From: a virus
Virus record (IMG/VR): IMGVR_UViG_3300033153_008767
Location: 1 to 28,744 of that record
DNA length: 28,744 nucleotides
Direction: 5' to 3' (one strand)
The notes under the pieces: model-generated
What the model was told of the DNA's origin: nothing
Databases searched by the model: none
What the model saw: the letters and a program-made list of their open reading frames with translations, nothing else
In this document: one piece after another, positions 6,737 through 28,674 of the stretch
Position numbering within the stretch: position 1 is the stretch's first letter
Layout of the letters: each line of letters opens with the position of its first letter
Made by a program: the position numbers and the translations under genes

Positions 6737-6761
6737 TGTTAACCTCTAATATCCTTATCCT

Positions 6762-6793
6762 CTATTATAACCTAGTCGTATAGGATATAATAG
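6762..6793. promoter_or_regulatory. Palindrome with TATAATAG half-sites upstream of the portal gene
   Basis: The arms CTATTATAACCTA (6762-6774) and TAGGATATAATAG (6781-6793) pair at 12 of 13 positions around a 6-base loop. Each strand therefore carries TATAATAG, which looks like a -10 element. The palindrome lies 26 bases upstream of the portal start in the 103-base gap after the BppU-like gene. The same core occurs in three other intergenic regions. It may be an operator, a phage-specific promoter or a terminator-like hairpin; the sequence alone does not decide. Confidence 0.5.
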
Positions 6794-6839
6794 AAGTATT
6801 TTACTTTATTTAAAGTATTAGTAACGTCTTATATAACCC

Positions 6840-7182: not shown

Positions 7183-10100
7183 TTATAACTCCACTTTATT
7201 TCTTATTGCTTTACCAATAAGAACTTGTTCATTAATCTTAGTTGTGATTTGCACATCTTCTCTTAATAATTTATTTATTGTTACACTTTCCACAATACTC
7301 TTGCTGATATAAACATCAAATCTCATTCTATTAACAAATACACTGGTTATAGTAAATACATTAGCAATATCAGTCTCACTAGCAAGATTAATTAATGCTA
7401 ATTTTGAAATCGTATTGGCTAACGCTTCATCAATTTCATAAGCAGAGTTAACAATTACAAAGCCTATTTGGGTAACAGCTTGAGCAATATCTTCTTCAGT
7501 AGACAATCCAATATGAGCAGTAAATCTATGGTCTATCGAATTTGATAAATCTACTTCTTGAGATTGAATTAATTCATATGTTCTATTTAAAGACATATCA
7601 AAAGATAAATCAGTTTCAAGAGATTGCCCAACATGACTGGTAAAAGAATGTATTATTAATAAACTTAAATCATCTTCTGTTGCTTGAATTATTTCTTTTA
7701 ATTTTGATATATTATTTTCTAAACCAGAATCAATTTCATCAGCTATTATTATAGCTTTGGCTTTTGATTTATTTATATCAAAGCCAGAATCTGTTTCAAA
7801 AGAAGTATTAAAAGTATAATATTTTATTCTTGTTATGGCTAAACTATTATCAAATTCATTACCAAATAATAAACTATACAATTTCTTTTTATCAATATCA
7901 TTTGCTAAATCATATTCCAATGATACACCAATCACAGTAGCAGCTGAACTACTAACTATAAAAGCTATATCAGTTTCACTTGCGATATCAAGCGTTCTTA
8001 ATTTGCTATGCAGGTTTTCAAAAGCACTATCAGTTTCGTTAGTTAAATTTGTATCAAAACCTCTATCTATATCTATTATTGTTGAGTTATCAACTTCTAA
8101 CGTCAACCCTAATATTGAAGATATAATGTGTTTTACTATAGTTGCTGTATTAGTTTCAGTTGATAAGTTTAATTGATAATTCTTCAAAGAACTATTATTA
8201 AATGCTTCATCAATTTCATTAGCAAGGTTTATTAATTTTAACTTACTAATACTTGTAATGTTAGCAGTATCTTCTTCTAATGATAAGCCCAATATAGCAC
8301 TAAATATATGATCTATTGCAAACGCTTCATCAGTTTCTTCAGATGCTCCAACTAAATTAGTTAGTGGTATAGATACAACAAAAGAAGTATTATCTTCACT
8401 AGGTTGATTAATCACTCTTATTTTTGGTACAAAAAGAGGGAATGAAATATCAGTTTCATCTATAATATTTAATAATATTGATTTTAATTCATTAACAGTA
8501 AAACCTAAATCTGTTTCACCAGCTTGATTAATCAATAGCTCTTTCAGACCAGTAATTAATAAACTTAAATCAGTTTCATTAGACTGTCCTATTAATAATT
8601 CTTTCAGACCAGAGATTAATAAAGCTGAATCAGTCTCATTACTTTGACCTATTAATAATTCTTTTAAACCTGTTAATAGTAAACTTAAATCAGTTTCATC
8701 AGATAATCCAATTAATAATTCTTTTAATTTAGAAACCAATAAAGCTGAATCATTTTCATTTGCTAATAAAATAGCTTGTGAAATACCAGAACGAATCACA
8801 TCAAAAGCAATATTAGTTTCAATTGCTATATCAATGACTTTTACAATTGCTGCTCTAATAACATCAAAAGCAATATCAGTTTCATTTGATAAGCCAATTA
8901 ATTTTTCTTTTAGTGTATCAATTGCAAAGGAAGAATTAACTTCAGTTCCAACATTTAATAACCAAGTACTTAATGATGTTTGAATAATTGAAGCAAAATC
9001 AACTTCACTTGATAATCCAATTTGATTAAAATTCTTTCTTGAAACACCAAATGATGAATCATTTTCTAACGCTTGGTCTAGTATTGCCCAAAGACCTCGT
9101 ATTGAATTAATTGATAATGTAGAATCTGATTCAAGTGACAACCCAATATCTTGGAATAATGGTACAATTATATAATGATCAAAACCAACATCCCAAGCTT
9201 CAGTAGCATTTCTAGTATCCCCATCAATATCCTCTGTAAACATTGCTGAATAATTTATACCAAAATGTCGTAATTTTGAACCTTGTGCTTGATGGAAATT
9301 TTTATTTGCATAATTAACAAAATCTACTGATGTTACATCTATTTCTACGCCCATATAAACTTCAAAGTTATCATCATTAGCGGCGTTTTTCTCACAAATG
9401 AAATTATTTCTATAGTCAGACCATGTCTCATGTGCAGCATCTATAAATACACTATTAACAATATTAAGTTTTGTAGGAGACGATGGCCTAAACAACACAT
9501 ATATATTATTAAACACGCAATTGTATATTTTATGTATAGTTGCTGATACACTTTCAGCAGATATAGCACCTTGGTTTGTATCTGGATAATTTAGAAATAG
9601 TGAATTATATATAACAGTTGATAAGCCATGAAGATATGCAGAATAATGTGAACCTGTAGCATTGAGATTCCCATCAAATATACAATTAGAAATCACACAA
9701 AAATCAGAAAGATCACGAAAAATCAAAATCCTTGATGTCGTAGCAAATAGTGGTTTATAAAAATTAATCCTATCAAGAGCAATATAAGAACATAACAAAT
9801 CAAGTATATATGAACTACTAGTTGTACTTACTTTAAACCCGTCACCTATGATTCCTTTGTGACTCTCATCAATGGGAACTGTGAGTTTTATATTATTTAT
9901 TGAATCACAATTTTCATTAATATATTGTATAGAATCATCTAATCCTGGAGAAGCCCAGTCATCATAACAATCAGCTTGCCATTTTTGATTCTTATCAATT
10001 AAATTAGTTGGTGTCAAAGTAAGAAATGCTGACAATGAAGTAAAATAACCTTTATACTCTGCTTGCTCTGGACCGGTCATACTATCCCAACCAGTAGTTG

Positions 10101-12474
10101 TACGAATAGCATATTTAATTAAACGAAGCGGAGGTCTTACAACAAAAGAAGAATCAACTTCTGTTGATTGGGTTAAAAACACATGTTTAGGCCCAATAAC
10201 AATAAATGCAGAATCAGTTTCTAATGATTGATGTATTGTAAATAGTATACCTGCTGAAACAATTTGAGCAATATCAGTTTCTATAGGTAAACCTAAATCA
10301 ACAGTTTGATCTAAAACAGCATAAAAATCAGCACCAATATCCCAAGCCCCAGAAGAAGGTTGTGTATCTCCATCAATATCTTTAATAAATTCTGAATAAA
10401 GATTTATTCCCTCACCTATTAAAGAAGACAATCTTGATAAATGATAATTATCATTTGTTACGCTGAGAAAATCTGCAGAATCTACATCTGTAATAACAGG
10501 ATTAAAATTAGTGGCATTTGTAGTTCCAGCACTATACGCATTATTAGAACTATCTGCTGTAATTCCTGAAGACTCACTTAAAACTTTTGTACAATCATAT
10601 AATACAGTATTTTTAACTGTTGCAATGCTACCAGAATCTAATTGAAATCCTCTATCAGCATTAACAATCGTCACATTATCAGCAAAAATAACAGCAGTTG
10701 AAACAGTATTTGCTGACATTGCAGTAGAACCTGTACTACCTGTTCCGAACATTATACAATTTCTTATAGTCTGAGAACTTCCTCTACAAACAATTGATGT
10801 ATGGTCTCCATCAACATTACTATCTATTACCAATGAATCAACCAAACCACCAATACTTCCATAATCAAATTTTAAATTTAATGACCAGCCCCCATATAAA
10901 CTTTTACCAAATCCTATATTATTAATTCTTGAATAATCTGCTGTTAAAATAATTGCATAATAATAACTGTCACTATAAATAAGAAATCCACTATCTCTTA
11001 AACCTTGGTGATATTCAGAAAGTGGTGAAGTGATTTCAATATAATTAACTGAGCTAGTTCCACTTGATGTAAAATTAGTATAATCATTTAATCCAGGTGA
11101 CGCCCAATCTGCATAACAATATGCCTTCCAACACTCGTCAGGTGTAATTAAATCATCAGGAACAATAGCTTTAAATGCTGATAAAGAAGTGAAATACCCA
11201 GAGTATTCTGCTTGCTCAGGGGCAGACATACTATTCCAACCATCAGCAGTTCTAATAGCATATTTAACAATTACAGTTTGCATAACTAATGCTAATGCTG
11301 AATCAGCTTCTATAGCTTGTAATATAGATGTTAATCTATCTGGCACAATTGAAAAAGAAGAATCAGTTGACTCTGATAAGCTAATAACTTGCTCTTTTAG
11401 CCTATTTATTACAAATGAATTATTAGTTTCCTCTGATAAATTAATTGGTATATTTACTGAAGTTATTAGTGCTAATGAAGAATCAGTTTCTTCTGGTAGG
11501 TTAATTGCCTTATCTTTTGCAGAGTTTAATAAAAAACTTATATCATTAGTTTCAGATAAGCCAATAAGTTGATTTTTTGCAGCACTTAATTGAAATGATT
11601 CGCTAACACTTTCTGATAATCCAATTACCTGCTCTTTTAATATTGAATTAGCATTAGAAATATCAACTTCTTCTGAAAGACCTATTACCTGTTCTTTTAA
11701 TGTTGATAATTGAAAACTAACGTCAGAGCTTTCTGTTAAACTAATTGCTTGTTCTTTTAATATTGAATTGGCATTAGATATATCAGTTTCATTCGTTAAT
11801 CCAATATTAATACCAACTACAACAGTTGCAGCAAGTGCTAATGCTGCAGTAGTTGGAAGCCCTGTAGTAATACTTTTAACAGGATTTATCGAAGCAGAAC
11901 TACTGGTTGTTAATGGTAAATCTGTAGGAATAGTTTGACTACCATCATCATAAGTAATGGTAAACGTTAGCTCATCACGAAGCATTGCCGTATGAGCATT
12001 TGTATTATTTATGTGGTCATTACTACCACTTATTGATAGTGTAATGCTGTTAGAACTTGCTAAACTTAATCCAGTAGAGTCTACACCAGTACTATTAGCC
12101 CAAGAAGTTGGAGCAATATAACTAGCAACAGCACTTGATAAATTAATAGTTGTTGCACCATCTATTAATGTAGCACCACCATTAATAAGATAGTTTGCGA
12201 AATCATAAATTGTACATTTATGATTCATTGAAGCCACTGTTACACCTGTAATGGTAACATCAGAAGGCACACCAAGCCCTTCCCAAGTGGTGGTTAAATC
12301 CCAATGCCCATTAAGTTCAGTGTTATTTCTACCATCACTAACATAACTAAGAGAACCATTAGCAGGGTCTCCATCTGTACCATCCCAAACACCAGTAGAT
12401 TTTCCAGAATCTGATGTAAAAGTAAATGATTCAGTATCACTTGGAAAACTAAATGTTTTGACTAATGTTCCCAT
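7183..12474 (-). CDS. Giant virion adhesin: about 42 copies of a 20-residue repeat plus two beta-helix modules, 1763 aa
   Basis: A single 1763-codon frame whose ATG overlaps the upstream stop (TAATG). Residues 1-218 form a Gly/Ser/Thr-rich beta domain. Residues 219-398 are nine tandem 20-residue repeats with consensus LKEQVIGLSEETDxSFxLxx. Residues 399-720 and 781-1105 are two related modules; each opens with KYAIRTxxGWxSMxxPEQAEY, passes through DWASPGL, and closes with EDIDGDTR-like and WDxGxDxY sequences, the look of right-handed parallel beta-helix surface proteins. Three repeats link them (721-780). Residues 1106-1708 are 30 further repeats; 1709-1763 are a unique C-terminus. Polysaccharide-active or receptor-binding function is likely, as a fibre or capsid-bound adhesin; no catalytic motif was recognised. 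It is preceded and followed by small virion genes. Confidence 0.8.
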   Translation of the reverse strand: MGTLVKTFSFPSDTESFTFTSDSGKSTGVWDGTDGDPANGSLSYVSDGRNNTELNGHWDLTTTWEGLGVPSDVTITGVTVASMNHKCTIYDFANYLINGGATLIDGATTINLSSAVASYIAPTSWANSTGVDSTGLSLASSNSITLSISGSNDHINNTNAHTAMLRDELTFTITYDDGSQTIPTDLPLTTSSSASINPVKSITTGLPTTAALALAATVVVGINIGLTNETDISNANSILKEQAISLTESSDVSFQLSTLKEQVIGLSEEVDISNANSILKEQVIGLSESVSESFQLSAAKNQLIGLSETNDISFLLNSAKDKAINLPEETDSSLALITSVNIPINLSEETNNSFVINRLKEQVISLSESTDSSFSIVPDRLTSILQAIEADSALALVMQTVIVKYAIRTADGWNSMSAPEQAEYSGYFTSLSAFKAIVPDDLITPDECWKAYCYADWASPGLNDYTNFTSSGTSSVNYIEITSPLSEYHQGLRDSGFLIYSDSYYYAIILTADYSRINNIGFGKSLYGGWSLNLKFDYGSIGGLVDSLVIDSNVDGDHTSIVCRGSSQTIRNCIMFGTGSTGSTAMSANTVSTAVIFADNVTIVNADRGFQLDSGSIATVKNTVLYDCTKVLSESSGITADSSNNAYSAGTTNATNFNPVITDVDSADFLSVTNDNYHLSRLSSLIGEGINLYSEFIKDIDGDTQPSSGAWDIGADFYAVLDQTVDLGLPIETDIAQIVSAGILFTIHQSLETDSAFIVIGPKHVFLTQSTEVDSSFVVRPPLRLIKYAIRTTTGWDSMTGPEQAEYKGYFTSLSAFLTLTPTNLIDKNQKWQADCYDDWASPGLDDSIQYINENCDSINNIKLTVPIDESHKGIIGDGFKVSTTSSSYILDLLCSYIALDRINFYKPLFATTSRILIFRDLSDFCVISNCIFDGNLNATGSHYSAYLHGLSTVIYNSLFLNYPDTNQGAISAESVSATIHKIYNCVFNNIYVLFRPSSPTKLNIVNSVFIDAAHETWSDYRNNFICEKNAANDDNFEVYMGVEIDVTSVDFVNYANKNFHQAQGSKLRHFGINYSAMFTEDIDGDTRNATEAWDVGFDHYIIVPLFQDIGLSLESDSTLSINSIRGLWAILDQALENDSSFGVSRKNFNQIGLSSEVDFASIIQTSLSTWLLNVGTEVNSSFAIDTLKEKLIGLSNETDIAFDVIRAAIVKVIDIAIETNIAFDVIRSGISQAILLANENDSALLVSKLKELLIGLSDETDLSLLLTGLKELLIGQSNETDSALLISGLKELLIGQSNETDLSLLITGLKELLINQAGETDLGFTVNELKSILLNIIDETDISFPLFVPKIRVINQPSEDNTSFVVSIPLTNLVGASEETDEAFAIDHIFSAILGLSLEEDTANITSISKLKLINLANEIDEAFNNSSLKNYQLNLSTETNTATIVKHIISSILGLTLEVDNSTIIDIDRGFDTNLTNETDSAFENLHSKLRTLDIASETDIAFIVSSSAATVIGVSLEYDLANDIDKKKLYSLLFGNEFDNSLAITRIKYYTFNTSFETDSGFDINKSKAKAIIIADEIDSGLENNISKLKEIIQATEDDLSLLIIHSFTSHVGQSLETDLSFDMSLNRTYELIQSQEVDLSNSIDHRFTAHIGLSTEEDIAQAVTQIGFVIVNSAYEIDEALANTISKLALINLASETDIANVFTITSVFVNRMRFDVYISKSIVESVTINKLLREDVQITTKINEQVLIGKAIRNKVEL
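7351..9159 (-). repeat. Tract of 30 repeats of 60 (rarely 63) bp inside the giant adhesin gene
   Basis: Encodes residues 1106-1708. Twenty-seven units are 20 residues and three are 21. The most conserved positions are an E-T-D (or E-x-D) triplet at units' centre followed by a small residue and a hydrophobic one. DNA identity is highest in the four units at 8491-8730, where LKELLIGQSNETD recurs; other units have diverged strongly but keep the period. Confidence 0.9.
10135..10314 (-). repeat. Three linker repeats between the two beta-helix modules
   Basis: Encodes residues 721-780 of the giant protein: units ending in LPIETDIAQIVS, SLETDSAFIVI and STEVDSSFVVR, each 20 residues and in phase with the same ETD-centred pattern as the two large tracts. 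Confidence 0.8.
11281..11820 (-). repeat. Tract of nine 60-bp repeats near the start of the giant adhesin gene
   Basis: Encodes residues 219-398. Units such as LKEQVIGLSEEVDISNANSI recur without phase change, 9 x 20 residues. LKEQ begins four units. It belongs to the same repeat family as the C-terminal tract but has kept a more uniform Leu-Lys-Glu opening. Confidence 0.9.
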
Positions 12475-15615: not shown

Positions 15616-17049
15616 TTATCCTACAAATATTTCTTCTGGCTCTCTGACTCTTCTGAGAAATTGACTAGTCATATCAGCTTGGTCAAAATTCTCGCTATTT
15701 GGAAAATTTTCCATTTCAGTTTCATAATCAAATAACCAAGGTGCTTTATTTGGCAACCAACAATTTCCAGCTTCTATAGCAGGACTTTCATTACTCAATC
15801 TAACAAGTTTATCGCCTTGACCAGTTGGCTCTATTGGCACTATGTTAAATGTAGTTTCAAATTGTAAATCTTGTATTAATTGTTGACCAGAAGCTTTGTC
15901 TTCAATCAAGCACTCATGTGGCCTCCATTTCTCAAGTAAGTTTATCACCTTTCTTTTCAATATTGGGTAAATAACTTTGTCTTTCCAAACATCAACTAAA
16001 TAATGCCCAGCATCAGTAGTTATCCAAACACCACAAACAGAAGGGTCGTTTATTTCCTTATCTTTATTTGCTGTATCTAAAGATAGTCTCATTGTATAAT
16101 GTTCTTTCATAGTAGGTGCAACATCATATCTATTAAACCATTCAAGCCTTACAATACCACCACCTTTTGGTGAAGGTCTTTGTTGTTGTTGAGCTGAATA
16201 ACCATAACTTCCAAGGCGTTTTTTAAAACTGGCAATTTCATCTTTTCCAGCACGCTCTTCATGTAATAATTCACCTTGTTTTCTTGTAATAATTCTACCA
16301 CTTCTTGGAAACGTTATTATTTGCGCAGTCTCAGCTTCTTGAGGTATTACAACTTGCGTCCAACCATCATCTTCAGAAAGCATTTTTCCAGTTGGATCTT
16401 TTACATGTAACCTCTGCATAACAATAATTTCAACAGCAGTCTTGGGGTCGTTTTTTCTAGTTGACCAAGTCTGGTCTATCCATTCATTAGCAGTGTTCCT
16501 TTCTGCTTCAGACATTGCCATACGTGGATTAATTGGATCATCTTGTATAAGAAAATTACCACCATCCCCAGTAGCACTTCCTCCAACAGATGTGGCAATT
16601 CTATGTCCACGTTTTGTTGTTTGAAATTTATCTTTAGCATTTTGATCCTTTGCTATTATTGTTTCTGGAAATAATAATTTATACCATTCTGATTCAACTA
16701 TTAATCTTGTGTCAACACTATGCTTAGTTGACAATTTACCAGAATAACTAGCGCACATAAATTTTTCAGATGGGTCTCGACCTAACCCCCATGCCGGAAA
16801 AGCTACAGTACAAGTGTTTGACTTCATAAATCTTGGTGGAATGTTTATTATCAGTTTTAGTATTTCACGTTCCCAAGCTGCTTCAAGAAATTCACAAATA
16901 TATTCTATGTGCCAATTCATTTTTAGAATAGCACCTGGGTCAACTATTCCAAATGCTTTGATAAAAAATGAAATTAAATGCTCACGTTGCTCCCTTCTTT
17001 GAAGCATAGTTTTGGCAGCTTTTTGTTTAATTTCCTGTGTTGCTATCAT
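15616..17049 (-). CDS. terL: Terminase large subunit
   Basis: A 477-residue packaging motor with ATPase and nuclease domains. Walker A is PPRFMKS (residues 71-77; this TerL branch often varies the residue before KS), followed by FPAWGLGRDPSEKFMCASYS. Walker B with its catalytic acidic residues is FLIQDDP (166-172). The nuclease part starts near YTMRLSLDTANKD (first Asp), continues with LIEDKASG (second acidic residue) and ends near FDQADMTSQFLRR (third). It cuts concatemeric DNA and pumps it through the portal. The preceding gene overlaps it by 23 bases and is a candidate small subunit. Unusually, the next gene downstream is not the portal but a lysis cassette. Confidence 0.96.
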   Translation of the reverse strand: MIATQEIKQKAAKTMLQRREQREHLISFFIKAFGIVDPGAILKMNWHIEYICEFLEAAWEREILKLIINIPPRFMKSNTCTVAFPAWGLGRDPSEKFMCASYSGKLSTKHSVDTRLIVESEWYKLLFPETIIAKDQNAKDKFQTTKRGHRIATSVGGSATGDGGNFLIQDDPINPRMAMSEAERNTANEWIDQTWSTRKNDPKTAVEIIVMQRLHVKDPTGKMLSEDDGWTQVVIPQEAETAQIITFPRSGRIITRKQGELLHEERAGKDEIASFKKRLGSYGYSAQQQQRPSPKGGGIVRLEWFNRYDVAPTMKEHYTMRLSLDTANKDKEINDPSVCGVWITTDAGHYLVDVWKDKVIYPILKRKVINLLEKWRPHECLIEDKASGQQLIQDLQFETTFNIVPIEPTGQGDKLVRLSNESPAIEAGNCWLPNKAPWLFDYETEMENFPNSENFDQADMTSQFLRRVREPEEIFVG

Positions 17050-17452
17050 CTTTATTATCCAAAGCTATATTGATATCATCACCTTTTATTATTGATTCCA
17101 ACATTTCATCTGTCATTTCTTCAGTACTGTTGAAGTGTTCAATACGATTTACATTTTCAATAGATTTCTTTTTGGAGTGTAAATATTCCGTTAGGCTAAC
17201 AATATGCTTTGATTGAATCTCATTGCTTGGTTTTGTTACTGATAAAGCGTTTGCGATTAATCCCCAAAAATCATCTAACGCTGATTGTTTTATTTCACCA
17301 TCCTGAATATCAACAAGTATTTTATTCCATTTATCTTTTATTTTTGGTAAATCAGAATGTGGAGTGTTAACTGGCTTGCCCATAGCAAGTTGTGCTGATA
17401 GCTTGAGTGGGTTACAACCAATTTCTTCAAGTGTTTTTTCAATATCTGACAC
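17027..17452 (-). CDS. Possible terminase small subunit, 141 aa
   Basis: A protein of 141 residues if it starts at the GTG at 17450-17452, which has TTGGAG 6 bases upstream. An in-frame TTG 12 bases earlier is that ribosome binding site and an unlikely start. The sequence begins MSDIEKTLEEIGCNPLKLSA, has a helical middle (ALDDFWGLIANAL) and an acidic C-terminal part (STEEMTDEMLESIIKGDDIN). It overlaps terL by 23 bases, the usual place of terS. No helix-turn-helix motif is clear. The gene at 18210-18677 is a second candidate, so this call is tentative. Confidence 0.5.
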   Translation of the reverse strand: MSDIEKTLEEIGCNPLKLSAQLAMGKPVNTPHSDLPKIKDKWNKILVDIQDGEIKQSALDDFWGLIANALSVTKPSNEIQSKHIVSLTEYLHSKKKSIENVNRIEHFNSTEEMTDEMLESIIKGDDINIALDNKDDSNTGN

Positions 17453-17676
17453 CAGAAACTCCAATAAATTTATTTATACTTTTTACCCTTTTATTATATC
17501 TTAAAATAAGAGATAATAGAAGGTTTATTTTTATAAAAGCGACCCTAACGTTAAGATTAAGTTTTTAATATAAGGCTATTTAAGAGGATAAAAATATTAC
17601 CTATAGAATCCTATTAAATATAGATTTAAGCCTATGCAATAAGTCATTTACCCTATACAAACGCTATATTTAAGGC
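17453..17676. promoter_or_regulatory. 224-base A/T-rich intergenic control region upstream of terminase genes
   Basis: Holds an imperfect palindrome TATTATATCTT (17492-17502) / AAGAGATAATA (17508-17518), TAATAGAAG (17514-17522, plus), TAATAGGAT (17608-17616, minus) and the 8-base palindrome TAACGTTA (17546-17553), which recurs at 21777-21784. On the minus strand TATAAT lies inside the first palindrome. No open frame with a ribosome binding site was found. This is the best candidate for a leftward promoter for terminase, lysis and virion genes. Confidence 0.5.
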
Positions 17677-18051
17677 TTAATAATAGTCTATAACTTTCAA
17701 CCTTTCTTTAGCATAAAGTCTGAATCCTCTCTCAGTTAATATTTCCAATGTATGATCAACAATAAACTTCCAAGACTCTGTATTGCGTCTGTACATTAAA
17801 ACAGGGTCTTCACCTCTATCTTCTGCGCTTTTAATTGTCTGTTTCCACCACTTGTTAATTTGTAAAACCTGACACCTTTTCACTTCAACACAGAAACAAC
17901 CGACCCCAACTAAATCACCTCCACCACTTCTAACTTGTTCTAAATTGCGTTCAGGCATGATATGTAATTTCAAATTATAAAACAACCAACTAGCAGCCTG
18001 TCTTTCACCACTAGCACCTTTGTTTCTTGAGTTAATTCTTTTCTTTGCCAT
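17677..18051 (-). CDS. PD-(D/E)XK nuclease (Holliday-junction-resolvase-like), 124 aa
   Basis: A 124-residue protein read from the ATG at 18049-18051, with AAGGAAAT upstream. A longer in-frame reading would overlap the small membrane gene before it and lacks a better start. The N-terminus is basic (MAKKRINSRNKGASGERQAA) and carries the helix Glu of the fold; RSGGGDLVGVGCFCVEVKRC holds the Asp and the ExK catalytic pair. After that comes an INKWWKQTIKSAEDRGEDPV helix and VLMYRRNTESWKF. Proteins of this look cut branched or damaged DNA in phage replication and packaging. Its place next to the terminase suggests clearing of junctions before packaging. Relation to VRR or archaeal-type resolvases is uncertain. 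Confidence 0.8.
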   Translation of the reverse strand: MAKKRINSRNKGASGERQAASWLFYNLKLHIMPERNLEQVRSGGGDLVGVGCFCVEVKRCQVLQINKWWKQTIKSAEDRGEDPVLMYRRNTESWKFIVDHTLEILTERGFRLYAKERLKVIDYY

Positions 18052-18061
18052 GTTTATTTCC

Positions 18062-18208
18062 TTAACTGAATAAATACCATGTAATAAAACCGATACAAGA
18101 CACTGCACAAATATCAATAGCAATAAGAGTAATAAATAATAATCTTATGTGTTTATTGTGTCTAATATTTTCGTCAATAAATTTATCTAATGCATCATTA
18201 TGTTTCAT
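18062..18208 (-). CDS. Uncalled 48-aa single-pass membrane protein
   Basis: The ATG at 18206-18208 has GGTGG 7-8 bases upstream and lies 1 base past the stop of the preceding gene. The product begins MKHNDALDKFIDENIRHNKH and then has one hydrophobic stretch (IRLLFITLIAIDICAVSCIG, FITWYLF). It ends at TAA (18062-18064), and the nuclease gene follows after 10 bases. The charged N-terminus plus single span is typical of phage membrane microproteins involved in lysis control or exclusion, but no function is evident. Confidence 0.7.
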   Translation of the reverse strand: MKHNDALDKFIDENIRHNKHIRLLFITLIAIDICAVSCIGFITWYLFS

Positions 18209-18209
18209 T

Positions 18210-18677
18210 TTAATCCACCAATATGTTAACAACAGGTTTATCTTTTATCATTTTTATTAATTCTTTTGCTTCTATGATTGTAATCTTTCCTTTTGATACA
18301 GCTGAAATAACCTCTTTCACTGTATTGACTTCTATCTTCCTTAAATCTCCAGCTTGTTGTAAAATTGGCATAACAGCATTAAACAACATATCCTGTGATT
18401 TAATATCACTTTGATCCATGGCGTTTTTTATTTTGCCTTTTGCTCTATCAGAAACTGCTCTAATTGCATTAGCACCTTCCAATAAAATGTATTGTCTTAA
18501 TACCTCTTTAGTCATAGGCTTAGAGTCTAAAATCTCTGAGATTGTATCTAATGTATAATTAGCCATGCTCTCATGATACTTTGCTCTTTCCTCAGAATCA
18601 GCTGACATGTCATTCCCAAAGTCTGGGTCTTCCATTGCCTTCATTAATTTGATTACATTTTTGGCATTGTTAGCCAT
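18210..18677 (-). CDS. Helical protein, 155 aa; alternative terminase small subunit candidate
   Basis: A 155-residue, largely helical protein with a GGAG ribosome binding site. Residues about 50-100 are alanine/charge-rich (TKEVLRQYILLEGANAIRAV, SDRAKGKIKNAMDQSD). The C-terminal KGKITIIEAKELIKMIKDKP resembles the closing segment of some phage small terminases ('l..GeIt..EA..l..l'). It is followed by a membrane microprotein and a nuclease and lies about 1.2 kb upstream of terL. A packaging role is plausible, but the gene directly overlapping terL is the positional favourite. Its upstream region has unusual sequence (18678-19075), which would fit a packaging recognition site. Confidence 0.55.
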   Translation of the reverse strand: MANNAKNVIKLMKAMEDPDFGNDMSADSEERAKYHESMANYTLDTISEILDSKPMTKEVLRQYILLEGANAIRAVSDRAKGKIKNAMDQSDIKSQDMLFNAVMPILQQAGDLRKIEVNTVKEVISAVSKGKITIIEAKELIKMIKDKPVVNILVD

Positions 18678-19075
18678 GTTTTACTCCTTTTTGCCAACGT
18701 TGACAAAGGTTTTGGAAAAAATAATTATAATATACTTATATTATTCAATATACTTTTGGATATACTCTTGAAAGCCTAGTATTAAAGGGGTTAGAGGGCT
18801 TTAGAGAGAGAGTATATATATATATGATTTTATTCTTACCCTCTCTCGCGCCCTCTCGCGCTCGCGCAGACCTAAACACATTTTCATATTTTTACTTTTT
18901 TGCGCGTTCTAACTTTTTCACTTTTTCACGTTGTCAGACTCTCACTTTTCTAAAAACGCCCCTTCTCGCCCGCGCCCTATATATTCTATATATTTATATA
19001 TTTAGCTCTAAGTTATTGATTTATATAATGTTTTCGGTCAAAGTAAAATATATATAGCGATATATTTATATAGAT
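18678..19075. other. 398-base non-coding region with CpG-rich and TATA-rich blocks
   Basis: No convincing gene is present. Features seen: TATATATATATAT (18813-18825); a CpG-rich block (18843-18867) in which CTCTCGCGC occurs twice at a 10-base interval, then TCGCGC; TGCGCG (18901-18906); ACTTTTTC twice in tandem near 18912-18927; CTCGCCCGCGCC (18965-18976); TATATATT-type runs (18977-19006) and a near-palindrome ATATATATAGCGATATAT near 19050-19066. Such alternation is foreign to the rest of the window. It may hold a packaging site, replication origin or leftward promoter. On the minus strand TATAAT occurs about 50 bases before the gene at 18677. Confidence 0.5.
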
Positions 19076-19192
19076 TTACTTTTTGGCAACCTTGCCACTA
19101 ACGATCAATTTAATATATTGCCCTTTGAAATTCACACCAAGAGTGTTTTTGATTTCTTCATCGCCTTTTCCAATGATTTTCCATACCGCTGG
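19076..19192 (-). pseudogene. Detached C-terminal end of the primase-helicase (+1 frame)
   Basis: Removing one G (base 19193, C on the plus strand) from the minus-strand reading ATA-G-CCA joins the primase-helicase frame to a 38-codon open stretch, PAVWKIIGKGDEEIKNTLGV and onward to KVAKK and TAA at 19076-19078. In the present sequence the frame instead runs to ASGMENHWKRR and a TGA at 19158-19160. The shifted reading has the composition of a folded protein end. There is no own start or ribosome binding site. It may reflect a sequencing error, a real indel, or less likely recoding. Confidence 0.6.
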
Positions 19193-21554
19193 CTATTGTA
19201 TTAATTTGATTTGTTCCAAAAGTTAAGTATGAATGTTTAAACAGGCTGTGACTTTGTTCTTGCTTATTATGTTTGTGTTTGTAACCCTTTGTATGTAGCT
19301 TTTCAAGCATAAATTCAACAATAGCTTGAACCAATCTTGAATCACTTGATTCTGTATTTCCCATATTTGCTTTCATTGATCTTTTACATTCTTTTACATA
19401 TGAAATTGCATAATCAATATGTATTTTATTTACAATATTAGCAGTTCCATTTAATATAGATTCAATATAAGCATACAAAAGAGCTTCTGATTTCACTTGA
19501 GCAATTTCACGAACAAACATTGATCTTTCTGCTTCTGAAATTGAATTGCCTTTCTTTCTCAAAATATATTCTTTATCAACCATTTCTTCAAATACTTTTT
19601 GTGTATAATCATCTGGCTGGAATAAAACATAATTGTTAAACTCTACATTTTTTAAACTTGGCCCCATAAATTTTGATTCTTCATCAATTTGATATTCAAA
19701 ATTTTCACCTCTATTTGCTTCCATCACTAACATTTTTAATTTATCAATTATTGATTCTGAGAATGGAGAATATGCTAATTTTCTTGGTTTTGAGCAGGGT
19801 TCACTAGTGGCAAAATGGTGAAATTTTCTTGCTTCATCGCCAGAGTTTATACTGTCTTGTGTAAAATTATGAACATAAGAAGTCTGAGTTGATTCTTCAA
19901 GAATTGATAGAGTTGTTCCATAAACATCAGGCAGGGCATCAGCGAAATCAGATACATCATATGGAGAATAAGAACCCTTTACAATATTCTGCATAATATA
20001 TTGTTTTACTTTCCATACATCACCAGATTGTGATTTACTGGCAATACCAGCTTCTGGAATAATAACACTCATAGAAGGTGATCTAATGAGCTTTACATGA
20101 AGTGCTTTAACACCATATGTTCCTTTTGAGCCTCTATAACATTTTAATAAGTCATTAGAGGTATTCATTATTAATTGTTCAATTACATCATTTAAAACTT
20201 TATTTGGTGTATCTTTACCAACACCTTGATCTGCTAATAAAATATTTATTTGTGAAAGAGTAGAAGCTTGAAAACTTGCTTTTCTTCCTAACAAAGAGCG
20301 TGTGACATGACGAGCAGAGATTATTGAAATTTCTTTGTGAGGCCATGGCATTCTTTCCCATATTTCTTTAGCAAATACACCTACAAAACCAGGTGGCCAG
20401 TCATGTCTTGTTATTTTTTCACTTTTCTTTGCTATTGTTATAATTTCTTTTTCTTCAACATAAACTTCAAGATTATAATTTTTACCACCATGCGCGTGTG
20501 AGAATATTCTTGGAGCTGTTGATATTAAATCAAGATATGCAACTTTTGAAAAATAATCATATATTTCTGGTTCAAAAGGATCATAGCATCTTTGTCCATG
20601 ATATACTTCTGGATTCTTTAAAAGTTCTGATACAAAAATATTAGTTCCATCTGATAAGAGAATTTCAAAGTCTTGGTTTAAAACTTCTGACTCTCTCATC
20701 TTTAAAACATTTTTTCTGGAGTGACCCTTTTTTACTTGCTTATCAATCCATACTTCTGTTTGTTTATCAGCATTTTTTACAGATAATGCCTTTGCCGCAT
20801 TAACAAGTTCATTATAATCATTTTCTTCTTTGGTTGATAAATCAGGAATTGAAGATGTGTCAATAGGTTTATTTGAATTATTATAAATTTTTGTTTGAAT
20901 ATCTTGATGGTCTGGTTCTTTTACATCAGCTTTGATAAAACATAAACGTTCAGGACTGTTTACAGCTTTGTCCATAATTGTTCTTGGGTGCATTCTTCCA
21001 GCTTTATCAATAAAAATATAACCATGACCAGATAACCAAAGACGTTTAAAAAGTATTGTATTTAATCTTTCGATATCTTTTGAATCTAAAATTGATACAA
21101 GAAAATGTTGTCCTTTGATTGGTGAACCATTAATACATGAAGAAGATGAAGTTTTCCAAAAGGTTGGTGCTTGTTCCAATTCTGGAACAGCTTGTTGATA
21201 TGCTTCTAAAAGTTGATCACGGTGTAAAGGTGTTCCTACAGGGTCATAATCAATTAATAGAAATCCAGGATTATCCCTGTATTTAAAATTTTCTTTTGTT
21301 CTTTCAAGAATTTGATATTCAGAACCTTTACATGTTATTTTTATTGCGTCAACATTTTCTTCATAAGTACCAAAACCAAATGCATTTATTGCGCTAGACC
21401 CATCTACAATTTCTTGTAGTTCAGCTACATTTTTTATTTTTATTTTAAATGCTTTGCCTTGTTTTAAAGTACCTGGGTGTTGGAGTTTTCCATCTATGAA
21501 TCTTTTTGATATTGGGTTAAGTGTGGATTTGTACAACGTGAATATTGTATGCAT
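19158..21554 (-). CDS. Primase-helicase: AEP-like primase domain plus P-loop ATPase (3' end probably frameshifted)
   Basis: A 798-residue replication protein with AAGGAT before its ATG. The N-terminal third has archaeo-eukaryotic primase features: LLIDYDP (Asp102, Asp104), a Ser-rich loop with GQH (His150), and a third acidic site in IFIDKAGRMHPRTIMD (Asp183). The middle has PRIFSHAHGGKNYNL (near 348-361), a sequence typical of phage primase-helicases. The ATPase domain has a P-loop ADQGVGKDT (441-449), then PEAGIASKSQSGD and an EESTQTSYVH region that look like family helicase/ATPase motifs of the DUF3987 type. It should prime and unwind DNA at phage replication forks. It is read leftward, away from the other early genes. 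The last 11 residues are probably out of frame. Confidence 0.85.
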   Translation of the reverse strand: MHTIFTLYKSTLNPISKRFIDGKLQHPGTLKQGKAFKIKIKNVAELQEIVDGSSAINAFGFGTYEENVDAIKITCKGSEYQILERTKENFKYRDNPGFLLIDYDPVGTPLHRDQLLEAYQQAVPELEQAPTFWKTSSSSCINGSPIKGQHFLVSILDSKDIERLNTILFKRLWLSGHGYIFIDKAGRMHPRTIMDKAVNSPERLCFIKADVKEPDHQDIQTKIYNNSNKPIDTSSIPDLSTKEENDYNELVNAAKALSVKNADKQTEVWIDKQVKKGHSRKNVLKMRESEVLNQDFEILLSDGTNIFVSELLKNPEVYHGQRCYDPFEPEIYDYFSKVAYLDLISTAPRIFSHAHGGKNYNLEVYVEEKEIITIAKKSEKITRHDWPPGFVGVFAKEIWERMPWPHKEISIISARHVTRSLLGRKASFQASTLSQINILLADQGVGKDTPNKVLNDVIEQLIMNTSNDLLKCYRGSKGTYGVKALHVKLIRSPSMSVIIPEAGIASKSQSGDVWKVKQYIMQNIVKGSYSPYDVSDFADALPDVYGTTLSILEESTQTSYVHNFTQDSINSGDEARKFHHFATSEPCSKPRKLAYSPFSESIIDKLKMLVMEANRGENFEYQIDEESKFMGPSLKNVEFNNYVLFQPDDYTQKVFEEMVDKEYILRKKGNSISEAERSMFVREIAQVKSEALLYAYIESILNGTANIVNKIHIDYAISYVKECKRSMKANMGNTESSDSRLVQAIVEFMLEKLHTKGYKHKHNKQEQSHSLFKHSYLTFGTNQINTIASGMENHWKRR

Positions 21555-23940: not shown

Positions 23941-24039
23941 ATGAATAATAGAAAGCAATTTAATAAAAAGAAACAACGTGCCAAAGTGAAAGCCGCACGT
24001 TTGGCAAATAAACTCAGGAGAAATAAAAATGCCAATTAA
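23941..24039 (+). CDS. Uncalled 32-aa highly basic protein
   Basis: ATG at 23941 preceded by AAGGATCAAGG. The product MNNRKQFNKKKQRAKVKAAR, then LANKLRRNKNAN, is about 45 percent Lys/Arg and would be a single helix or disordered. It overlaps the next start by 11 bases. It may bind nucleic acid or simply couple translation to the ATPase gene. Confidence 0.6.
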   Translation: MNNRKQFNKKKQRAKVKAARLANKLRRNKNAN

Positions 24040-24844
24040 AATCACAAATACTAATGTTGCAGCAACTAATGTAAAAGTGCTTGTGTATGGGCCTGCTGGT
24101 ATCGGAAAGACTGTACTATGCAAAACGTTACCAAATAATATTATTATTAGTGCTGAAGCAGGTTTGTTATCACTTGCTGATGATAATATTGATGTGATTG
24201 AAATCGACACTATTAAAGATTTAGCTGAAGCATATGAGTATCTTGATACTAATGAAATGCGAGCTAAATATGCAAATGTTTCTTTGGATTCCTGTACTGA
24301 AATTGCTGAAGTTTTATTAAGCAAATTAAAAGCGGAAAACAAAGACCCACGTGCTGCTTATGGTGCTTTAGCTGATCAAATGACTAAGATTATTAGAAAA
24401 TTCAGAGATATGCCACATTATAATGTTTACTTTACTGCTAAAATGGCAAAAGTAACAGATGATGATTCTGGAATTACAACTCATTATCCGATGATGCCTG
24501 GAACTCAGCTTAAACAAGGATTATCATTTTTCTTTGATGAAGTTTTTGTAATGCGTATGGGTAGAACAGAAGCTGGGACTGATTATCGTTATTTACAAAC
24601 TCAACCTGATTATCAATATGAAGCAAAAGACCGTTCTGGTAAATTAAAAAGAATAGTCAAAGCTGATTTATCAGTTGTCTTTAAAAAGATTCTTAAACAG
24701 AAAGTTGACGAAGATGCTGATAAAGTTATTGTTGAAGAAAACCATGAAGAATTAGTTGAAGTAATTGACAATGCTATTAAAGATGAGACTTTTGAAACAG
24801 AATCAACAGAAGGGGAACAATCAGCAGAAGATACAGGCAAATAA
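24029..24844 (+). CDS. Sak4-like RecA-fold recombination ATPase (AAA_24 type), 271 aa
   Basis: A 271-residue protein with AGGAG before the ATG. The Walker A is GPAGIGKT (residues 21-28), Walker B is in YANVSLDSCTEI (Asp87), and a sensor-like stretch follows (HYNVYFTAKMAK), as in the phage nucleotide-binding proteins grouped as Sak4. Members pair with phage SSB to anneal or exchange single-stranded DNA during recombination-dependent replication. The C-terminus beyond residue about 215 is an acidic tail (EENHEELVEVIDNAI). The DUF669/SSB-like gene follows, separated by a terminator-like hairpin and a palindrome. Lacks the longer domains of helicases. Confidence 0.85.
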   Translation: MPIKITNTNVAATNVKVLVYGPAGIGKTVLCKTLPNNIIISAEAGLLSLADDNIDVIEIDTIKDLAEAYEYLDTNEMRAKYANVSLDSCTEIAEVLLSKLKAENKDPRAAYGALADQMTKIIRKFRDMPHYNVYFTAKMAKVTDDDSGITTHYPMMPGTQLKQGLSFFFDEVFVMRMGRTEAGTDYRYLQTQPDYQYEAKDRSGKLKRIVKADLSVVFKKILKQKVDEDADKVIVEENHEELVEVIDNAIKDETFETESTEGEQSAEDTGK

Positions 24845-24930: not shown

Positions 24931-25461
24931 ATGGCTCAACTGCCAAGTAATTTTAACAGTAACACAGAAGAAGAAATGAATGATTTTTCTGCATTAAAAG
25001 CAGGATGGTATCCTGTTTCAATGGTGAAATCTGAATTGAAAAAATGTGGGCAAAATGCAAAAGACCCAAATGGAAAATACCTTTCATTTCGTTTTAAAAT
25101 TCTTTCTGGAACAGGAAAAGGATCAATGTTTTTTACGAATGTAAATATCATTAATAAAAATCCTGCTGCTGTGGAAATGGCCAACAAAGAAATGAATACT
25201 TTGCGTAAAAGTGTTAATAAACCAAAAGCATTAGATACTGAAGAATTGCATGGCATACCACTTCTTGTAAAGGTTAATTTTGTCCCAGCCAATGAAGATA
25301 AAGGCTGGTCTGCTAAGAATGAAATTAAAATGTATGCTAAATACGATGAAACTAAAATTTCATTTCCAGTAGCTGGGCAAAATGCTCCATCGCAAGGTAA
25401 TGATCCTGCTAATACAACTGAACAGGCAGGTAATGATGATATGCCTTGGGATGATGACTAA
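24931..25461 (+). CDS. DUF669-type single-stranded-DNA-binding-like protein, 176 aa
   Basis: A 176-residue protein with AAGGAG before the ATG. It has the DUF669 pattern: DFSALKAGWYPVSMVKSELK, NGKYLSFRFKILSGTGKGS, FFTNVNIINKNPAAVEMANK and LHGIPLLVKVNFV, all matching an OB-fold-like phage family. The C-terminal 40 residues are flexible (Gln/Asn/Pro-rich) and end in DDMPWDDD, which resembles the acidic hydrophobic-tipped tail by which SSBs bind partners. It likely covers ssDNA and works with the Sak4-like ATPase and the nuclease. The extra final acidic residues after Trp differ from the usual SSB ending in P-F. Confidence 0.85.
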   Translation: MAQLPSNFNSNTEEEMNDFSALKAGWYPVSMVKSELKKCGQNAKDPNGKYLSFRFKILSGTGKGSMFFTNVNIINKNPAAVEMANKEMNTLRKSVNKPKALDTEELHGIPLLVKVNFVPANEDKGWSAKNEIKMYAKYDETKISFPVAGQNAPSQGNDPANTTEQAGNDDMPWDDD

Positions 25462-26255: not shown

Positions 26256-26731
26256 TGAATATTGATGAAAAGAAATTAGAAGACTTGTTAACAACCACTG
26301 GTTTTAATTTAGTTAAAGGTTGTGAAATTAAACCTGCTGATTGTGATGGATGCCAAAATAAAAATATTAAATGTGGGATTTGTAAAGATAGTCTGGATTT
26401 AATAAGCCATTTTAAACCTAAGCAAAATGAACTGGATAAGTTGTTTATTGGTGCGCCTGTTATTCAGTGTTGTGAGCAGTCAGAGTGTTACCCAATTGTT
26501 TATCTTAGTAACCACAAAACGGTAGCAAATTGCAATATTAGACTCCCAACAATCAAAGAAGCACCTCGCAATGTATGGCTTGCACCTTGGCATAAACAAC
26601 CAGAAAAGCTAATTAATTTGAATGCTTATGTAAAATTAAAAGACATGGATATGCTTTCACCAATAGATAATTGGTTTGTAAGTTGGGATGATGTAGAAGC
26701 TGTAATGATTATGGAGGACTTCAAGAAATGA
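26255..26731 (+). CDS. Cysteine-rich early protein, 158 aa, possible zinc finger
   Basis: Read from the ATG at 26255. The region of Cys23, 30, 33, 40 and 43 (CEIKPADCDGCQNKNIKCGI, then C) makes two CxxC knuckles that could bind zinc. More cysteines follow near residues 72-78 (QCCEQSEC). The C-terminal half is an aromatic, mixed fold (NVWLAPWHKQPEKL, DNWFVSWDDVEAVMI). No family recognised. It overlaps the next gene by ATGA. Confidence 0.65.
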   Translation: MNIDEKKLEDLLTTTGFNLVKGCEIKPADCDGCQNKNIKCGICKDSLDLISHFKPKQNELDKLFIGAPVIQCCEQSECYPIVYLSNHKTVANCNIRLPTIKEAPRNVWLAPWHKQPEKLINLNAYVKLKDMDMLSPIDNWFVSWDDVEAVMIMEDFKK

Positions 26732-27180
26732 AACAAATAAGCGATAAAGCTTTTAAACAATATCAATCTATGTGTCATGCCGCTGGTATTGAGCCTGAAA
26801 AGTGGACTTATAAAGAGGTTAAACCTGGAAAGTGGACACCATCAAAGCAAAACTTCTTCTTTAACCAAAGAGGGGATGTTGCTCCAGCAACAGAGCATAC
26901 CATGCCAGAAATAGGTAGGGAAAGAAGCACCAAAGCCTTGTGCAAAATAGCCTCAGACCGGACTATGCGCGCTAATATCATTTCTGCATGGCTGGATTCT
27001 GAGGGAAGTGGTGAGCAGGATATCAGCAGTGGTAAAAAGCTATGTTGTATTTATTCTCATAAAGGAAAGTACTATATTTATGAATTATTAAGTTATGATT
27101 ATCCAGATATAGTTTATATGCTAATAGAAGATGGTATTAAACTTTGTAAAGCCTTAAATGATGGTGTGGTGGTATTGTGA
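26728..27180 (+). CDS. Hypothetical early protein, 150 aa
   Basis: A 150-residue protein with GGAGG upstream. Segments seen: HAAGIEPEKWTYKEVKPGKW, FFFNQRGDVAPATEHTMPEI and a helical KALCKIASDRTMRANIISAW, then IYELLSYDYPDIVYMLIEDG. The mixture of aromatic and charged residues suggests a soluble globular protein. No catalytic motif recognised. Confidence 0.7.
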   Translation: MKQISDKAFKQYQSMCHAAGIEPEKWTYKEVKPGKWTPSKQNFFFNQRGDVAPATEHTMPEIGRERSTKALCKIASDRTMRANIISAWLDSEGSGEQDISSGKKLCCIYSHKGKYYIYELLSYDYPDIVYMLIEDGIKLCKALNDGVVVL

Positions 27181-27789: not shown

Positions 27790-28674
27790 ATGGTAATGAT
27801 AAATCAAGAGAATACAAATACAACTTTATTCAAATTAAATGCACTAATAGCTAAACCAGACCCTATGAAAAGAAGAACATATTTAGGAATGTCTGGAACT
27901 GCTCACAGATGTATGAGAGCTTTGCAATATAATTTTCGTTGGGCTTCAAAGCAAGAAGAATTAGGTTTTAGAACACAAAGAATTTTTGAACGTGGCGACA
28001 TTGAAGAAGCAAGAGTAATACGTGATTTAAAAAGAATTGGTGTTGAGTGTTATGCAATTATTGATGGCAAAAAAGTTGAAATAACTGGTGCTATTGGCGA
28101 AAAACAAGAAGAAATAATTGGATTTGCTGGACATGTTTTAGGACACACTGATGGACGTTGTATAAATGTTCCAGAAGCACCAAAAACAGAGCATAGACTT
28201 GAAATAAAGACTGCAAAAGCATCTAAGTGGAAATTATTTAAAACAAAAGGGTGTAAATCTACAAGCATAACATATTATGGGCAAACACAAAGCTATATGG
28301 GTGATTGCGGATTAACTAGAACACTATTTATTGTTATAAATAAAGACACAGAAGAGTGGCACATTGAAAGAATTCATTTTGACAAAGATTTTTATGAAGA
28401 TTTGAAACGTAAAGAAATGATGGTAGTTACAACTGAAAATTTATTTGATAAATTAGTTGGTTTTGATGTAAAAATGAATTGCACTTGGTGTTCTCATAAA
28501 AATATTTGTAAAAATGATATGATGCCAGAAGTTAATTGTAGAACTTGTGGAAGTGCAGAAGTTCATAATGAAGGTAAATGGAAATGCGCTCATGATAATG
28601 ATAATAAGTTTCTTTCAAAAGAAGAGCAAGTTGTAGCATGTACTATGTATGAGGTGTCAAAATGGTTGATGTAA
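27790..28674 (+). CDS. Cas4/RecB-like PD-(D/E)XK nuclease with iron-sulfur and zinc cysteine sets, 294 aa
   Basis: A 294-residue protein with AAGGAT before the ATG. Catalytic signature: FERGDIEE (Glu72 region), HVLGHTDGRC (Asp121), HRLEIKTAK (Glu138, Lys140) and YYGQTQSYM (Gln165, Tyr169). Cys41 together with Cys231, Cys234 and Cys240 (CTWCSHKNIC) fits the one-plus-three cysteine 4Fe-4S arrangement of Cas4 and AddB-like nucleases. A further CRTCG (Cys250, Cys253) and Cys266 form a small zinc-ribbon-like extra not usual in Cas4. As a phage exonuclease it would make single strands for the Sak4/SSB-like pair. No Cas1/Cas2 is near. The gene overlaps the next by 13 bases. Confidence 0.8.
   Translation: MVMINQENTNTTLFKLNALIAKPDPMKRRTYLGMSGTAHRCMRALQYNFRWASKQEELGFRTQRIFERGDIEEARVIRDLKRIGVECYAIIDGKKVEITGAIGEKQEEIIGFAGHVLGHTDGRCINVPEAPKTEHRLEIKTAKASKWKLFKTKGCKSTSITYYGQTQSYMGDCGLTRTLFIVINKDTEEWHIERIHFDKDFYEDLKRKEMMVVTTENLFDKLVGFDVKMNCTWCSHKNICKNDMMPEVNCRTCGSAEVHNEGKWKCAHDNDNKFLSKEEQVVACTMYEVSKWLM

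What the first reader, a model, noticed from the sequence alone, without database searches (positions are those of the whole stretch)
18780..19072. CpG-rich blocks alternating with TATA runs next to the terminase genes
Within a very A/T-rich genome this stretch holds CTCTCGCGC repeated at 10-base spacing, several further CGCG groups, tandem ACTTTTTC, and (TA)n runs. It has no gene and lies just upstream of the small-subunit candidate. Such a mix of easily melted and GC-rich repeats would suit a cos/pac recognition site or a replication origin; recent acquisition is also possible.
Basis: partly seen in the sequence, partly recalled or inferred. Interest (0 to 1): 0.55.

Follow-up and report, generated by a model that had tools for sequence, protein, structure and literature searches.

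The report
Likely phage replication origin beside primase
A short non-coding stretch of an unknown, very A/T-rich phage packs its most easily melted DNA, its strongest hairpin and a knot of GC-rich repeats right behind its DNA-copying gene, which makes it a good but unproven candidate for the place where the phage starts copying its genome.

Summary
The 401-bp gap 18678-19078 between a minus-strand primase-helicase (PrimPol-like) gene and the minus-strand nuclease/terminase genes carries CTCTCGCGC twice at 10-bp spacing, 5 of the contig's 7 CGCG, tandem ACTTTTTC and the longest (TA)n run. It also holds the contig's least stable 50- and 100-bp duplex, its second most stable 50-mer and its strongest 90-nt hairpin on either strand (z -4.1). 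No relative close enough to align the gap was found. In distant phages the same kind of element sits in the same place: BPP-1, L174 and Shewanella phage SFCi1. In 10 further PrimPol phages an origin-like peak lies within 1 kb of the gene in 8, against 5 of 31 other large genes. Best reading: a replication-origin-like site used by the adjacent PrimPol, as proposed for pRN1 and phage BIP-1 (PMC4234260). A late-operon control region or packaging site is not excluded; an exact copy of the 19-mer lies upstream of a small-terminase gene in an unrelated phage.

The parts
18678..19078 (.). non-coding gap between the primase-helicase gene and the 155-aa/nuclease/terminase genes
   Evidence: largest non-coding gap of the contig
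18793..18856 (-). strong stem-loop: arms 18793-18808 and 18841-18856, with GAGAGAGAGTA/TACCCTCTCTC inside; about 18 pairs, 22-nt AT-rich loop
   Evidence: z -4.13, 0 of 200 shuffles as good; strongest 90-nt fold of the contig on both strands
18843..18867 (+). tandem CTCTCGCGC (18843, 18853), CTCGCGC again at 18861
18965..18978 (+). third, degenerate copy of the GC-rich repeat (CTCGCCCGCGCCCT)
   Evidence: family D1
18912..18927 (+). tandem ACTTTTTC
18978..19077 (.). least stable 100 bp of the contig; candidate unwinding element, with AT-rich inverted repeat 18985-18999/19060-19074
18716..18765 (.). second least stable 50 bp of the contig; contains a TATAAT-like box on the minus strand
18690..18707 (.). 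near-palindrome TTTGCCAACGTTGACAAA just before the ribosome site of the 155-aa ORF; possible operator, not above chance on its own
19079..21554 (-). primase-helicase (PrimPol-like) gene; main frame 19158-21554, apparent frame change, other frame open to 19079
   Evidence: (phrog_16593, phrog_3022)
18210..18677 (-). 155-aa ORF, no family
17677..18123 (-). PD-(D/E)XK / RusA-like nuclease
17027..17464 (-). 145-aa ORF overlapping the terminase gene; alternative small-subunit candidate by position
15616..17049 (-). terminase large subunit

Best explanation
The gap is a cis-acting replication-initiation site used by the primase-helicase encoded immediately beside it. Proposed steps: the protein binds the short GC-rich tandem repeats and/or the stem-loop behind its own gene; the neighbouring TATA-rich segment (18978-19077) melts; the helicase part loads and the primase part starts synthesis there. 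Shown: the sequence features and their rank within the contig, the gene order, and the same kind of features in the same kind of place in distant phages. Inferred: binding, melting and origin activity.
For: Within 400 bp: the least stable 50- and 100-mers of the contig (18978), the second least stable 50-mer (18716) and the second most stable 50-mer (18836); the strongest 90-nt fold on both strands. L174, with a primase 31% identical over about 400 aa and the order primase-gap-PDDEXK, has its least stable 100-mer, top repeat window (GGTCGCA and CGGACAA repeats) and top GC-normalised fold all in that gap. Phage BPP-1 has the same minus-strand order primase-(bbp28)-gap-nuclease-TerS-TerL; the gap at 26574-26808 holds the genome's least stable 100-mer and its strongest GC-normalised fold, -6.5 sd. 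SFCi1: top fold, -10.1 sd, and second-highest repeat window next to its primase. Top fold abuts the primase in 4 of 11 loci. Second set of 10 PrimPol phages: any of three peaks within 1 kb in 8 of 10, against 5 of 31 other ORFs of 400 aa or more (Fisher p 4.5e-4). Precedent: a 100-nt stem-loop behind the PrimPol-helicase gene of pRN1 is required for replication, and a stem-loop behind the BIP-1 primase was proposed as its origin (PMC4234260, abstract, passages and section 18 part 1).
Against: Repeat density of the gap is only at the 97-99.6th percentile of the contig, so there is no clear iteron array. After GC correction with 120-nt windows the hairpin ranks second, behind 6826. 7 of 11 first-set loci do not have the top fold beside the primase, and L196 and L200 have none of the three peaks there. 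In four Bcep781-like phages the least stable spots mark two gaps, one by the primase (in PhiXhv-7, two genes away) and one upstream of TerS or TerL, as promoters would. The BPP-1 stem-loop named in PMC4234260 is unremarkable in my scan (40th percentile); the exceptional one lies about 500 bp further on. The window primase has no Pfam hit and no BLASTP similarity to the BPP-1 primase. GC skew flips at 21.5 kb, not here. No DnaA box within 1 mismatch in the gap.
Confidence: 0.45

Rival explanations
1. Transcription-control region at the seam between replication and late genes: a promoter with TATAAT-like box and operator palindrome for the 155-aa/nuclease/terminase operon, with the hairpin acting in the mRNA as a processing or attenuation site.
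For: The gap precedes the first gene of the minus-strand packaging operon, with an AT-rich box and a palindrome just before the ribosome site. The hairpin is strongest in the minus-strand sense. In Bcep781-like phages the least stable spots are gaps beside the primase and upstream of TerS/TerL.
Against: No sigma-70-like site on the minus strand inside the gap by the simple scan, and the promoter count of the scanned region equals the shuffled mean. The hairpin lacks a U tract and is not called a terminator. The palindrome is not above chance (1 seen, 3.1 expected). It does not explain the GC-rich tandem repeats.
Confidence: 0.27
2. Packaging site (cos or pac) recognised by the small terminase subunit.
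For: It lies upstream of the nuclease/terminase genes. The exact 19-mer CTCTCGCGCCCTCTCGCGC occurs in 4 viral contigs; in L090 it lies about 280 bp upstream of a minus-strand TerS (phrog_51) in locally A/T-rich DNA, in the same relative orientation. In L209 a near copy lies in an A/T-rich gap beside an endonuclease/resolvase-like gene in a contig with a TerL.
Against: The motif pieces are not clearly enriched upstream of 125 TerS-position ORFs. Of 18 contigs with the relaxed motif, 16 are locally GC-rich (local GC 0.59 or more) and most hits fall in ORFs. L090's match is covered by a mechanically called 83-aa ORF. The TerS of this phage is not identified, and the 145-aa ORF next to TerL is 1.2 kb away. 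In P22, pac lies inside the TerS gene (PMC9611059 passages). No genome ends are available.
Confidence: 0.18
3. Recently acquired or drifting non-functional DNA with accidental GC-rich and TATA repeats.
For: CpG o/e 1.63 against 0.40 for the rest; no conservation can be shown because no close relative was found.
Against: No source found; several contig-wide extremes coincide in one gap; comparable elements sit at the same place in unrelated phages.
Confidence: 0.1

Closest known systems
[quoted passage not shown]
   Same: large stem-loop in non-coding DNA 3' of the primase-helicase gene; sequence need not be conserved
   Different: stem-loop starts about 220 bp behind the gene end rather than 54 bp; an extra GC-rich tandem repeat and TATA-rich segment; SF3 helicase and winged helix not established here; no functional test
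BPP-1 gap 26574-26808 (not the stem-loop named in the paper)
   Same: same gene order on the minus strand, least stable DNA of the genome, strongest hairpin after GC correction, arms built from short tandem repeats
   Different: the BPP-1 hairpin is much longer and nearly perfect; no sequence similarity; the primases show no BLASTP similarity
Iteron origins of primase-helicase replicons (satellite phage P4; repeats beside the L174 and SFCi1 primases)
   Same: short repeats and AT-rich DNA beside the replication gene
   Different: too few repeats for an iteron array
cos/pac sites of tailed phages
   Same: position near nuclease and terminase genes
   Different: no ends mapped, TerS not identified

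Membership tests
pRN1/BIP-1-type stem-loop origin | large stem-loop in non-coding DNA 3' of the primase-helicase gene | tested here: met
   (strongest 90-nt fold of the contig); second after GC correction with 120-nt windows
pRN1/BIP-1-type stem-loop origin | replication protein with archaeo-eukaryotic primase domain, SF3 helicase and winged helix | tested here: inconclusive
   DNA-primase PHROGs matched; no Pfam domain, no PDB match
pRN1/BIP-1-type stem-loop origin | stem-loop required for replication | not testable with these tools
   needs a plasmid replication assay
iteron-type origin (P4-like) | array of several direct repeats beside the initiator gene | tested here: not met
   two exact and one or two degenerate copies; repeat density at the 97-99.6th percentile
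iteron-type origin (P4-like) | AT-rich unwinding element next to the repeats | tested here: met
   least stable 100-mer of the contig at 18978
cos/pac site | virion DNA ends or first cut at this place | not testable with these tools
   the record is a 28,744-base virus contig; no reads available
cos/pac site | recognised by an identified TerS encoded nearby | tested here: inconclusive
   no TerS family match for the 155- or 145-aa ORF; models of low confidence

The most novel reading that the evidence does not exclude
Tailed phages with a PrimPol-helicase share a class of origin made of a hairpin plus an easily melted block set directly beside that gene, at the seam with the packaging module, with no conserved sequence; in some phages, this one included, the same element may also serve as the packaging start, linking replication to packaging.
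Probability: 0.15. Interest if true: 0.6.

Novelty: new member of a known kind. Interest (0 to 1): 0.4.

Why it matters
Origins are unmapped in most phages known only from sequence, and those of PrimPol phages are hardly studied. If the element is an origin, a simple rule (look beside the PrimPol gene for the least stable DNA and strongest hairpin) would predict origins in many phages, and BPP-1, a laboratory model, would be a ready test case.

Tried and rejected
Close relatives: blastn of the region against phages, viral contigs with the primase, TerL and 155-aa protein and tblastn of the 155-aa protein gave nothing close; TerL alignments gave 53-54% at best, without synteny or the other genes of this stretch. 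TerS identity of the 155- and 145-aa ORFs by phmmer against 8,834 ORFs and hhalign against clusters of 125 TerS-position ORFs: nothing. Structure prediction of both: pLDDT 48 and 55, so no fold search was made. Rfam: no match. tRNA: none. Iteron-array reading: not supported. Palindrome 18690-18707 as a significant operator: not above chance. Stability minima as proof of an origin: rejected as sufficient, because in Bcep781-like phages they mark promoter gaps too. The BPP-1 stem-loop named in PMC4234260 was not exceptional.

Rows dropped: L175, L176 and L180 are near-copies of L174 and L181 and were left out; L182, L185 and L188 were left out for run time, so the fold test covers 11 loci. For L177 and L178 only the 3' gap was counted. 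Fold and repeat tests of the first set were made after seeing the gaps (post hoc). For the second set I chose 10 of the 40 listed rows (927 records matched) by hand for host diversity before computing; the 1-kb criterion was fixed before the run but not written in the notebook. The control (31 ORFs of 400 aa or more) does not correct for the presence of a non-coding gap beside the gene.

Full report
What is there. The record is a 28,744-base virus contig at about 32% GC with no close relative in the collections searched. Minus-strand genes run from a primase-helicase (19158-21554) through the gap to a 155-aa ORF, a PD-(D/E)XK/RusA-like nuclease, a 145-aa ORF, TerL and structural genes; plus-strand genes from 21.9 kb carry a Sak4-like protein, an SSB-like protein and a Cas4-like exonuclease. 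In another frame the primase reads on to 19079, so the non-coding gap is about 401 bp.

Is it more than chance. CpG clustering exceeds 300 Markov contigs (11 against at most 8 in 120 bp); the exact tandem CTCTCGCGC, five CGCG, tandem ACTTTTTC and the longest TA run are all here. The duplex is least stable at 18978 (50 and 100 bp) and 18716 (second, 50 bp), while 18836 is the second most stable 50-mer. The hairpin 18793-18856 is the strongest 90-nt fold on both strands (z -4.13 on the minus strand, 0 of 200 shuffles; -2.72 on the plus strand). With GC-corrected 120-nt windows it is second. Repeat density is at the 97-99.6th percentile.

Comparison. Direct conservation cannot be tested. The primase N-terminal half finds 10 viral loci, Shewanella phage SFCi1, Pseudoalteromonas phage KB12-38 and Bcep781-like phages. 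In L174 the gap behind the primase holds the locus's top repeat window, least stable DNA and top fold, and is followed by a PDDEXK gene. In SFCi1 and L179 the top fold, and in SFCi1, L179 and L181 the top or second repeat window, lie in the gap on the 5' side. L177, L178, L183, L009, Bcep781 and KPhi1 lack the top fold there. Across 11 loci the top fold abuts the primase in 4; the chance from gap length is 3e-4, post hoc.

BPP-1. The literature search led to Berkner et al. 2014 (PMC4234260; abstract, passages and section 18 part 1 read): in pRN1 a 100-nt stem-loop behind the PrimPol-helicase gene is required for replication, and a stem-loop behind the BIP-1 primase was proposed as its origin. 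BPP-1 has the gene order primase, gap, nuclease, TerS, TerL on one strand. The stem-loop named in that paper is unremarkable in my scan, but the gap at 26574-26808 holds the least stable 100 bp of the genome and the strongest GC-corrected hairpin, with arms of tandem TTTGCCTCG. I found no later test of the idea in four searches (listings only), in a library limited to open-licence papers.

Second set. Ten phages with BPP-1-like primases were fetched. Within 1 kb of the primase lie the top fold in 4 of 10, the least stable 100 bp in 4, the top repeat window in 5, and any of them in 8; for 31 other ORFs of 400 aa or more the counts are 2, 2, 1 and 5 (Fisher p 4.5e-4 for 'any'). This control does not match for the presence of gaps, and origin-like features are also promoter-like: in four Bcep781-like phages the two least stable spots are a gap at or near the primase and one upstream of TerS or TerL.

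Packaging. The exact 19-mer occurs in 4 viral contigs. In L090 it sits upstream of a TerS (phrog_51) in A/T-rich, repeat-bearing DNA; a relaxed pattern gives 18 contigs, of which only L090 and L209 have A/T-rich surroundings. The pieces are not clearly enriched upstream of 125 TerS-position ORFs. P22 pac lies inside the TerS gene, and cos sites are bound by TerS (PMC9611059, passages). TerS of this phage is not identified.

Conclusion. The region is a genuine composite element. I put origin-like function for the adjacent primase-helicase first (0.45), late-operon control second, packaging third. Binding, melting and initiation are inferred, not shown. Counts use peak centres, and so differ by one from the markings. 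PMC7145576 was seen in passages only and is not relied on.

Noticed in passing
window 19079-19186, minus strand: The primase-helicase gene seems to change frame near its end: another frame reads VWKIIGKGDEEIKNTLGVNFKGQYIKLIVSGKVAKK up to a stop at 19079; a sequencing error or a real frameshift.
   Followed up: partly
window 7183-12474: 1,763-aa ORF with internal repeats of about 60 nt and a partial match to phrog_14065; probably a virion or fibre protein.
   Followed up: no
window 24029-24844, 24931-25461, 27790-28674: Sak4, SSB and Cas4-exonuclease replication/recombination set; the Sak4-like protein is 52% identical to Moraxella phage Mcat proteins.
   Followed up: partly
L189 (BPP-1) 26601-26720: Near-perfect 120-nt hairpin with arms of tandem TTTGCCTCG between bbp28 and bbp27, strongest GC-corrected fold of the BPP-1 genome.
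   Followed up: partly
L090 10731-11500: Gap upstream of a TerS with CGTTACCACTCAC repeats around an exact copy of the window's 19-mer.
   Followed up: partly
L174 9019-9612: Gap behind a PrimPol gene with nine GGTCGCA copies, a 51-bp exact direct repeat and CGGACAAA inverted repeats.
   Followed up: partly
whole window: CpG is strongly depleted (o/e 0.41) with TpG/CpA in excess (1.24, 1.25), mostly in coding DNA.
   Followed up: no
window 6737-6839: Intergenic hairpin CTATTATAACCTAG.../TATAATAG, near the top GC-corrected fold of the contig at 6826.
   Followed up: no
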